Source of the DNA: Halogranum amylolyticum | GTDB taxonomy: Archaea; Halobacteriota; Halobacteria; Halobacteriales; Haloferacaceae | Direction of reading: 5' to 3' | Assembly (NCBI RefSeq): GCF_900110465.1 | Contig: NZ_FODV01000008.1 | Span: forward strand, 62,001 to 126,000 | DNA: 64,000 nt | Part shown: in pieces, positions 26,172 to 33,821 of the stretch | Layout: every line of letters starts with the position of its first letter | How positions within the stretch are numbered: the stretch's first letter is position 1 | Notes under the pieces: model-generated | Seen by the model: only the letters and a program-made list of their open reading frames with translations | Told to the model about the DNA's origin: nothing | Database searches by the model: none | Made by a program: the position numbers and the translations under genes

Positions 26172-26286
26172 CGGGCCGGGAGGGACTTGAACCCCCGACC
26201 GTCTGGTGTCTCCCGCAACCACGCGCAAAACCGCTCGCGTAGTCACGATAAAAGCCAGACGCTCTGCCGAACTGAGCTACCGGCCC
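26172..26286 (-). tRNA. tRNA-Lys(UUU) with a 41-nt intron
   Basis: The minus strand starts GGGCCGG and closes with CCGGCCC plus a G discriminator; CCA is not encoded. The D arm is GCTC..GAGC, the anticodon stem TCTGG/CCAGA, the loop CTTTTA then A38, giving anticodon TTT, and the T arm GGGGG-TTCAAGT-CCCTC. Between bases 37 and 38 lies a 41-nt intron (26209-26249). A bulge-helix-bulge forms: a 5' bulge T36-A37-T, a four-pair central helix (C32-T35 with the intron 3' end), a 3' bulge A-C-A38, then an intron helix. The cut sites fall after the second base of each 3-nt bulge, as the archaeal splicing endonuclease requires. Confidence 0.93.
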
Positions 26287-32180: not shown

Positions 32181-32270
32181 TGTACCAGAATGTTCTCGGG
32201 AGAAGATAACTGTTCCCCCGCCGGACTCCGTGGCGACAACCGTTTGTACGCGAGGGTCCCACGAGTTCCC

Positions 32271-32558
32271 ATGCCCGACCGACTGCTGCGCATCAACGCC
32301 TACACCACGTTCGACATGCTCGACGGCACCGCCACGGGACACGACTTCGAAGAGGCGGCCTTCGCGGTGCTCAACGTCACGGCACCCCGCGAGAACCCCG
32401 ACCACGTGAAACTGGAACTGGAACTCGACAACACACAGTTGGACCGCCTCCCCGCGCACGCCGACCGCGTCACGCTCTCTGCGGATCAGGCGCGGACGCT
32501 CGCCGGCGAGTTAGAGAAGTACGCTGACCGCGTCGACGCCGCCCGAGACGAGGAGTAG
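32271..32558 (+). CDS. Conserved haloarchaeal protein (DUF6360-like)
   Basis: A 95-residue acidic protein: MPDRLLRINAYTTFDMLDGT, a central beta strand LNVTAPRENPDHVKLELELD, and a C-terminal helix ADQARTLAGELEKYADRVDAA. It has no Cys, signal peptide or membrane segment. The pattern matches the small haloarchaeal family I know as DUF6360; function is unknown. It is a single gene, followed by 314 bp holding the EamA promoter and leader. Confidence 0.75.
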   Translation: MPDRLLRINAYTTFDMLDGTATGHDFEEAAFAVLNVTAPRENPDHVKLELELDNTQLDRLPAHADRVTLSADQARTLAGELEKYADRVDAARDEE

Positions 32559-32718: not shown

Positions 32719-32730
32719 CGAAAATAAGTA
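32719..32730 (+). promoter_or_regulatory. TATA-like box of the EamA leader transcript
   Basis: AAAATAAGTA lies in an AT-richer patch about 26 bp before an expected start near 32750. That places the 36-codon upstream ORF and the leader hairpin inside the transcript. The stretch 32559-32718 shows nothing else. Confidence 0.5.
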
Positions 32731-32766
32731 GTAGCGAACACAGCGTTTAGTTGAGGAACCCAACAC

Positions 32767-32877
32767 ATGGGCTGTCAGTATCTCGACGTGCGTTCTCGTA
32801 TCGGCTCGACGACTCCCGGTTTCGGTGCCCGCAATACACACAATGCGGGCGTCCCGAAACCGGGGGTGCGGCGATGA
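32767..32877 (+). CDS. 36-codon upstream ORF in the EamA leader
   Basis: The ORF starts at ATG 32767 (MGCQYLDVRSRIGSTTPGFG) and ends ..GVPKPGVRR; its TGA at 32875-32877 overlaps the EamA ATG as ATGA. The second half is encoded by the leader hairpin, so ribosomes reading it would open the structure next to the transporter start codon. Whether it encodes a functional peptide, a control peptide or nothing cannot be decided. The overlap with the start codon is the best evidence for translation. Confidence 0.4.
   Translation: MGCQYLDVRSRIGSTTPGFGARNTHNAGVPKPGVRR
32812..32867 (+). promoter_or_regulatory. Long two-tier hairpin immediately before the EamA start codon
   Basis: ACTCCCGGTTTCGG (32812-32825) pairs with CCGAAACCGGGGGT (32854-32867), 14 bp with one G-U pair. 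Inside it GCCCGC (32827-32832) pairs with GCGGGC (32845-32850) around a 12-base loop. The hairpin ends 6 bases before the transporter ATG and would cover a normal ribosome-binding site. It could be a translational switch; no known riboswitch class is recognised. Confidence 0.65.
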
Positions 32878-33821
32878 GTTCCCGCGGTACGCTCACTCTC
32901 TTCGGTGCGGCGTCGGTGTGTCTCGGCACCTCCTTCGTAGCCATCAAAGCCGGACTCGCGACGGTGCCGCCGGTGCTGTTCGCCGCCTTCCGGTTCGACG
33001 TCGCCGCCGTCCTCCTCCTGGCGTTCGTCGCCGTCGCCTACGACTCGTGGCTCCCTCGAACGCGCAGCGACGTCGTCGGCGTCGTCGCCAGCGCCGTCTT
33101 CGTCGTCGGCGTCAACAACGCGCTGCTGTTCGTCGGCCAGCAGTACACCGCCAGCGGCGCGGCAGCCGTCATGTACAGCCTGATGCCGGTCGTCTCGCCG
33201 GTGTTCGCCTACCTCGCGCTCGGCGACCGGGTCGCACGCTGGGACGTCGCCGGCATCCTCCTGGGACTGGTCGGCGTCGTCGTCATCGTCCAACCCTCGC
33301 CCGACCAACTCGGCTCGGGGACGTTCGGCCAGTCGCTCGTCCTCCTCGCCGCACTCAGCGTCTCGCTCGGGAGCGTCCTGCTTCAGCGCGCCCGACCGCA
33401 GTTGGCGACGCTGCCGCTGTCGGCGTGGGCGATGCTCGTCGGCGCGGTCGGCCTCCACGTCGCCAGTCTCGTCGTCGGCGAGTCGGTGGCGACGATACCG
33501 TGGACGGCGGAGACGATCGTCGCAGTCGGCTACGTGGGCGTCCCCGGGACGGCCGTCGCCTACGGCGCGTACTTCCTGCTCATCGCGGAGGCCGGACCGG
33601 TCCGCGCCAACCTCGTCTCCTACGCCGTCCCCGCGGTGGCGTCGGTGACGGCGTGGCTGCTGCTCGGTGAGCAGCTCGCGGCGACCACGCTGGTCGGCTT
33701 CGGCGTCATCCTCGTTGGCTTCGCGGTGCTCCAGCGCCGACAGCTCCGTACGGAGATCGACCGCCTCGTCGCGACCGTCGAACGCGACGCGAGACGGTTC
33801 GACGCCGACCGCGACGACTGA
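32874..33821 (+). CDS. EamA/DMT-superfamily transporter
   Basis: A 315-residue ten-helix permease made of two EamA repeats. The N-terminal half has LFGAASVCLGTSFVAIKAGL and YTASGAAAVMYSLMPVVSPVFAYLALG; the C-terminal half has VRANLVSYAVPAVASVTAWLLLGEQL. EamA proteins export metabolites such as amino acids, nucleobases or sugars. I chose the ATG at 32874 (MSSRGTLTLF), which overlaps the stop of the upstream ORF, instead of a TTG at 32751. It is preceded by a strong leader hairpin, which suggests post-transcriptional control. Convergent with the 5'-nucleotidase gene. Confidence 0.88.
   Translation: MSSRGTLTLFGAASVCLGTSFVAIKAGLATVPPVLFAAFRFDVAAVLLLAFVAVAYDSWLPRTRSDVVGVVASAVFVVGVNNALLFVGQQYTASGAAAVMYSLMPVVSPVFAYLALGDRVARWDVAGILLGLVGVVVIVQPSPDQLGSGTFGQSLVLLAALSVSLGSVLLQRARPQLATLPLSAWAMLVGAVGLHVASLVVGESVATIPWTAETIVAVGYVGVPGTAVAYGAYFLLIAEAGPVRANLVSYAVPAVASVTAWLLLGEQLAATTLVGFGVILVGFAVLQRRQLRTEIDRLVATVERDARRFDADRDD

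What the first reader, a model, noticed from the sequence alone, without database searches (positions are those of the whole stretch)
32719..32877. Leader hairpin with a 36-codon ORF overlapping the EamA start
Directly before the transporter ATG lies a 14-bp stem (32812-32825 with 32854-32867) with a second 6-bp stem inside and a 12-base loop. An ORF starting at 32767 runs through the whole structure and ends in an ATGA overlap with the transporter start codon. Translation of that ORF would open the hairpin, and a folded hairpin would block the ribosome-binding region. This looks like a translation-coupled switch or attenuator, possibly responding to the transported compound. I know no archaeal riboswitch class with this shape. 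The pairing and the ATGA overlap are visible; the regulatory role is inferred.
Basis: partly seen in the sequence, partly recalled or inferred. Interest (0 to 1): 0.65.

Follow-up and report, generated by a model that had tools for sequence, protein, structure and literature searches.

The report
Conserved translational-coupling leader of haloarchaeal transporter
In several genera of salt-loving archaea, one membrane-transporter gene is preceded by a tiny overlapping gene and an evolutionarily maintained RNA hairpin that hides the transporter's ribosome-binding site, so ribosomes probably have to translate the tiny gene to reach the transporter.

Summary
A 14-bp stem (32812-32825/32854-32867), an 8-bp inner stem and a 10-nt loop lie inside a 36-codon ORF (32767-32877) that ends in ATGA over the EamA start at 32874. 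The window is from Halogranum. All 24 close EamA orthologues found, in five genera of the family (one probably Haloferax), carry a strong hairpin ending a few bases before the start and an overlapping 33-38-codon uORF. The inner stem has three double compensatory changes among three Halogranum species. Between genera most pairs outside the Shine-Dalgarno strand differ, and swapping arms costs about 15 kcal/mol. The 3' arm always holds an SD motif (GGGGGTG to GGGAGGTG), predicted 90-100% paired. Covariance models found the element only before this gene, and more distant EamA genes lack it. The uORF peptide and the loops are not conserved across genera, which speaks against an aptamer or a specific arrest peptide. 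Best reading: a cis-acting translational-coupling leader, in which uORF translation melts the SD hairpin and ribosomes reinitiate at ATGA. A ligand-responsive switch is possible but unsupported. It works like known translational coupling; the conserved structured uORF leader appears to be a new haloarchaeal variant. No expression data were available.

The parts
32721..32728 (+). TATA-like promoter element (AAAATAAG); implied transcript start about 32749-32753
   Evidence: Identical in the two congeners within the block GAAAATAAGTAGT; start inferred from the usual archaeal TATA-start distance, not measured
32753..32756 (+). SD-like GAGG before the uORF start
   Evidence: GAGGA recurs before the uORF start in Halogranum, g18 and g24, and TGAGAA in g26; predicted anti-SD pairing about -6 kcal/mol in the first three
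32767..32877 (+). uORF, 36 codons, MGCQYLDVRSRIGSTTPGFGARNTHNAGVPKPGVRR, stop TGA overlapping the EamA ATG
   Evidence: counterparts of 33-38 codons in all 24 close orthologues
32812..32825 (+). 5' arm of outer stem
32826..32833 (+). 5' arm of inner stem
   Evidence: three pairs with compensatory double changes in congeners
32834..32843 (+). 10-nt loop, sequence not conserved between genera
32844..32851 (+). 3' arm of inner stem
32854..32867 (+). 3' arm of outer stem, holding most of the SD motif
32862..32868 (+). Shine-Dalgarno motif GGGGGTG of EamA, buried in the stem
   Evidence: Predicted anti-SD duplex -12.5 kcal/mol; mean unpaired probability 0.02
32874..33821 (+). EamA/DMT-family transporter, 315 aa
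   Evidence: Pfam PF00892 E=4.5e-36; third-position substitution pattern begins at this start codon

Best explanation
This is a cis-acting translational-coupling leader. A promoter upstream of about 32750 gives a transcript whose first ORF is the short uORF. Ribosomes start on the uORF, from an approximately 15-nt leader in Halogranum and probably leaderless in the Haloferax-like genus. They translate into the hairpin, pull apart its 5' arm and terminate at the TGA that overlaps the EamA start codon. There the freed GGGGGTG can pair with 16S rRNA and the ribosome reinitiates on EamA. Without uORF translation the folded hairpin buries the SD and partly the start codon, so EamA stays off. The peptide itself is probably a by-product; the act of translating it matters. 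Shown by sequence: the anatomy, its conservation, the compensatory pairing, predicted SD burial, and restriction to this gene. Inferred: transcription start, uORF translation, the dependence of EamA on it, and reinitiation. Not known: whether any signal modulates the coupling.
For: All 24 close EamA orthologues in five genera have a stable hairpin just before the start (MFE -31 to -49 kcal/mol in 75 nt, z -2.2 to -6.9) and an overlapping uORF of 33-38 codons. In 23 it ends in xTGA; in L041 a 1-nt deletion shifts it to end at TAG in ATGAGTAG, still overlapping (read). Three inner-stem pairs in Halogranum change on both sides and all 66 cells pair, against 30-52% for slid partners; one outer-stem pair in g9 changes on both sides. 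Native arms pair at -42 kcal/mol on average, arms swapped between genera at -27. The hairpin persists in g24, where the intergenic DNA just upstream is only 38% G+C. SD zone mean P(unpaired) is 0.00-0.10 in 12 representatives, with anti-SD energies of -12 to -16; the anti-SD TGGATCACCTCCT occurs in 7 of 10 relatives tested. Two covariance models hit only EamA leaders above chance in 392 genomes. The EamA frame shows no coding pattern upstream of the ATG and is closed there in two genera. In H. volcanii the overlapping pairs tested were strictly coupled, and SD removal cut reinitiation by 20-80% in most pairs (PMC6728339).
Against: No transcript, ribosome-profiling or reporter data. The pre-hairpin half of the uORF has no third-position excess of changes, so there is no selection evidence that the peptide is made. 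H. volcanii does not use SDs for de novo initiation in 5' UTRs, and overlapping genes there are strictly coupled anyway (PMC6728339), so why the hairpin is needed is unclear. Two of three frames are often open in this G+C-rich DNA, so openness alone is weak evidence. RNA folding was modelled at standard conditions, not molar KCl.
Confidence: 0.66

Rival explanations
1. Regulated translational attenuator: ribosome speed or stalling on the basic, arginine-rich uORF, set by an amino acid, a drug-like substrate or stress, decides whether the hairpin opens, so the leader senses a condition tied to the exporter.
For: Same anatomy as bacterial attenuators. uORF peptides are basic (pI 9.3-12). An R-I or R-T dipeptide recurs at codons 10-12 in four lineages, where the leading edge of a ribosome would meet the stem base.
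Against: The peptide is not conserved across genera. Arginine richness is expected of noncoding frames in G+C-rich DNA. There is no codon run for one amino acid. The ligand is unknown.
Confidence: 0.17
2. Metabolite riboswitch, with the hairpin as aptamer or expression platform.
For: A structured leader directly before a transporter start.
Against: Single hairpin; loops and internal loops differ between genera; only the SD strand is constant. No Rfam match in the leader at gathering thresholds.
Confidence: 0.04
3. Binding site for an RNA-binding protein or sRNA that controls EamA mRNA translation or decay; the uORF is incidental.
For: A conserved, covarying hairpin would suit a protein site.
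Against: No conserved loop or bulge motif between genera. The uORF overlap is maintained in all 24, even after a frameshift in L041.
Confidence: 0.08
4. The leader encodes an N-terminal extension of EamA; the uORF is spurious.
For: The EamA frame is open back to 32751 in the window.
Against: That frame is closed in two genera. The third-position pattern of changes starts at the ATG.
Confidence: 0.03
5. A conserved sequence kept for DNA reasons (operator) or a transcription terminator.
For: An inverted repeat in a leader.
Against: Compensatory changes at the inner stem; no T-run after the hairpin as archaeal termination would need; position fixed to the start codon.
Confidence: 0.02

Closest known systems
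Translational coupling by termination-reinitiation in Haloferax volcanii (Huber et al. 2019, PMC6728339)
   Same: ATGA overlap, SD inside the upstream ORF, haloarchaeal host
   Different: There both ORFs are ordinary genes; here the upstream ORF is a short uORF with a non-conserved peptide and the SD lies in a conserved, covarying hairpin
RNA-unfolding translational coupling in bacteria and phages (e.g. f1 VII/IX, MS2 coat-lysis, rpmI-rplT; review PMC12548453)
   Same: A hairpin hides the downstream start site until upstream translation opens it; f1 VII/IX also has a -4 spacing and a long hairpin
   Different: Bacterial and phage gene pairs; here an archaeal leader with a dedicated uORF
mgtQ short ORF before the Salmonella mgtB transporter (PMC8092293)
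   Same: A short ORF whose translation frees the sequestered RBS of a transporter gene
   Different: 8 codons, lies between two genes, depends on acidic residues that destabilise ribosomes; the uORF here is longer and basic, and its peptide is not conserved
Bacterial leader genes with reinitiation (PMC4833913) and the Corynebacterium ilvB-II uORF (PMC10272879)
   Same: A short leader ORF close to the main start controls or boosts expression
   Different: ilvB-II is thought to act by transcription attenuation with a BCAA-rich peptide; no such codon bias here

Membership tests
Translational coupling by termination-reinitiation | Overlapping or very close stop and start codons | tested here: met
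   xTGA overlap in 23 of 24 orthologues, 8-nt overlap in the other
Translational coupling by termination-reinitiation | SD motif for the downstream gene within the upstream ORF (common, not essential) | tested here: met
   GGGGGTG/GGGAGGTG, -12 to -16 kcal/mol with the anti-SD
Translational coupling by termination-reinitiation | Downstream translation depends on upstream translation | not testable with these tools
   Needs a reporter with an early uORF stop
RNA-unfolding coupling / translational attenuator | RNA structure sequesters the downstream RBS | tested here: met
   Predicted P(unpaired) 0.00-0.10 in the SD zone; compensatory changes; arm-swap test. Prediction only, no probing data
RNA-unfolding coupling / translational attenuator | The hairpin lies within the upstream ORF, so its translation would open it | tested here: met
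   Both arms within 32767-32877
Regulated attenuator with stalling leader peptide | Conserved peptide or codon bias that senses a signal | tested here: not met
   Peptide differs between genera; no third-position excess before the hairpin
Riboswitch | Conserved aptamer sequence and structure | tested here: not met
   Loops vary; no Rfam match at gathering threshold
Riboswitch | Ligand binding | not testable with these tools
   Needs in-line probing

The most novel reading that the evidence does not exclude
An archaeal translational attenuator: elongation through the basic uORF, perhaps paused where its arginine-rich segment meets the hairpin, reports a cellular condition or exported substrate and sets exporter synthesis. 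It would be the first signal-responsive uORF/SD-hairpin switch in haloarchaea known to me.
Probability: 0.16. Interest if true: 0.8.

Novelty: new variant of a known kind. Interest (0 to 1): 0.5.

Why it matters
Structured leaders are described as atypical for haloarchaea (PMC4983044), and SD motifs there are thought not to work for de novo initiation but to help reinitiation (PMC6728339). A naturally selected SD-hiding hairpin inside a dedicated uORF, kept across five genera, is a ready native test of how archaeal ribosomes open RNA structure and reinitiate. It seems to occur in a Haloferax-like genus, so genetics should be feasible. It also warns that short uORFs in haloarchaeal leaders may be functional even when their peptides are not conserved.

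Tried and rejected
A P1 helix (GUUGAG/CUCGAC) enclosing the first half of the leader: present in the window and L003 sequences but not in L002, dropped. Second copy of the element in the genome or elsewhere: none; the weak covariance-model hits L220-L226 were inspected and do not show the element before a start codon. N-terminal extension of EamA: rejected. The cross-genus MAFFT alignment A1 misaligns the arms, so covariation was counted within genera and tested between genera by arm swapping. Own-genome 16S 3' end not found; the anti-SD was checked in relatives instead. phmmer found no solved relative of this EamA, and no NCBIfam model passes its cut-off for it. The ribosome-passage simulation is only illustrative, since it lets pairs span the ribosome. 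Papers on H. volcanii translation were searched for this gene or uORF without a hit.

Full report
WHAT IS THERE. EamA starts at ATG 32874 and ends at 33821. Before it lies a 36-codon ORF, 32767-32877, whose TGA overlaps that ATG. Inside the ORF is a hairpin: 14-bp outer stem, 2-nt bulge, 8-bp inner stem, 10-nt loop. The fold beats all shuffles (z -3.65 for 141 nt; z -5.3 for 75 nt).

COMPARATIVE EVIDENCE. Orthologues were found by whole-genome search in the genus, family and order. Twenty-four close orthologues (54-100% identical, the window's own included) fall in five genera: Halogranum (3), g24 (1), g18 (2), g9 (15) and g26 (3). g9 is probably Haloferax, since a contig of one member best matches a Haloferax plasmid. 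Synteny supports orthology: a nitrite/sulfite-reductase-like gene, DUF6360 and EamA recur in this order in all the compared loci whose genes could be called, with a beta-CASP protein downstream in most. All 24 have a hairpin ending a few bases before the EamA start. More distant EamA genes (52-54%, g17, f4) and other paralogues lack it.

PAIRING IS SELECTED. Among the three Halogranum species three inner-stem pairs changed on both sides (GC to AU, CG to GC, CG to UA) with 100% of cells paired; slid structures pair 30-52%. In g9 one outer pair changed CG to UA in two distinct sequences. The number of sequences is small, so shuffle controls are modest (22/500 and 12/500 for the covariation score). 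Between genera the arms differ in sequence: native arms pair at -42 kcal/mol on average, arms swapped between genera at -27 (sd 4.6). The hairpin is also kept in g24, where the intergenic DNA just upstream is 38% G+C but the hairpin 63%. A covariance model from Halogranum alone recovers the g24 leader (E 8e-6) and g18 leaders (E 0.003 and 0.04) but not the g9 or g26 leaders, whose sequences differ more.

WHAT THE HAIRPIN HIDES. The constant part is the 3' arm: GGGGGTG in Halogranum and g18 (GGGGTG in L041), GGGGGTC in g24, GGGGGGTGG in g9, GGGAGGTG or GGGGGGTGG in g26. It lies at Shine-Dalgarno distance from the start and is predicted to bind the 16S tail at -12 to -16 kcal/mol; its mean unpaired probability is 0.00-0.10. 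The tail sequence was found in 7 of 10 relatives.

THE uORF. Every orthologue has an ATG/GTG-started ORF of 33-38 codons overlapping the EamA start. In L041 a 1-nt deletion shifts the frame, yet the ORF read from its ATG ends at TAG in ATGAGTAG, still overlapping. In the region between uORF start and EamA start the third frame carries 21 stops across the set, the EamA frame 2 and the uORF frame none apart from L041. An SD-like GAGG or GAGA lies before the uORF start in four lineages; in g9 the TATA-to-GTG distance implies a leaderless start (inference). The peptide is not conserved between genera, is basic (pI 9.3-12), and its first half shows no third-position excess of changes, while EamA does from its first codons. 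So translation of the uORF, not its product, is the likely function.

SPECIFICITY. The element is single-copy. In 1.66 Mb of Halogranum DNA no other site scored significantly.

MECHANISM. The simplest account is coupling: the ribosome on the uORF opens the stem and reinitiates at ATGA. Overlapping pairs in H. volcanii are strictly coupled, with gene-dependent help from the SD (PMC6728339). A structure masking SD and AUG is used to control translation in synthetic riboswitches in H. volcanii (PMC8241225). The puzzle is that SDs are thought inactive for de novo initiation there, so the hairpin may serve to limit or tune reinitiation rather than to block new ribosomes. I rate coupling at 0.66 and a signal-responsive attenuator at about 0.17.

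LIMITS. All evidence is sequence-based. Transcript start, uORF translation and dependence of EamA on it are untested. The transported compound is unknown: the best NCBIfam matches (YedA-like exporter, carboxylate/amino acid/amine transporter) are below their cut-offs. Paper searching covered open-licence papers only, so an earlier description elsewhere cannot be excluded.

Noticed in passing
L004, L005, L006 (EamA paralogues, 45-48% identical, in the three Halogranum genomes), immediately before the start codon: A second EamA gene also has a short overlapping uORF (23-35 codons, ATG start, GTGA overlap), with GGAGGTGG before the start in L004, but no comparable conserved hairpin.
   Followed up: partly
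window 32797-32802 (uORF codons 11-12): An Arg-Ile (or Arg-Thr, Arg-Val) pair recurs at uORF codons 10-12 in four lineages although the rest of the peptide differs; similar nucleotides (TCGTATCG) recur too. Unexplained.
   Followed up: partly
window 26172-26286, minus strand: Rfam tRNA match spanning 115 nt, suggesting an intron-containing tRNA; ARAGORN with the tool's settings did not report it.
   Followed up: no
window 32268-32558: The DUF6360 gene lies next to EamA and a nitrite/sulfite-reductase-like gene in the compared genera; a functional link is possible.
   Followed up: no
G000 (window's own genome): The 16S rRNA 3' end GGCTGGATCACCTCCT is absent from the held assembly, which is also flagged 10.8% contaminated; rRNA contigs are probably missing.
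   Followed up: no
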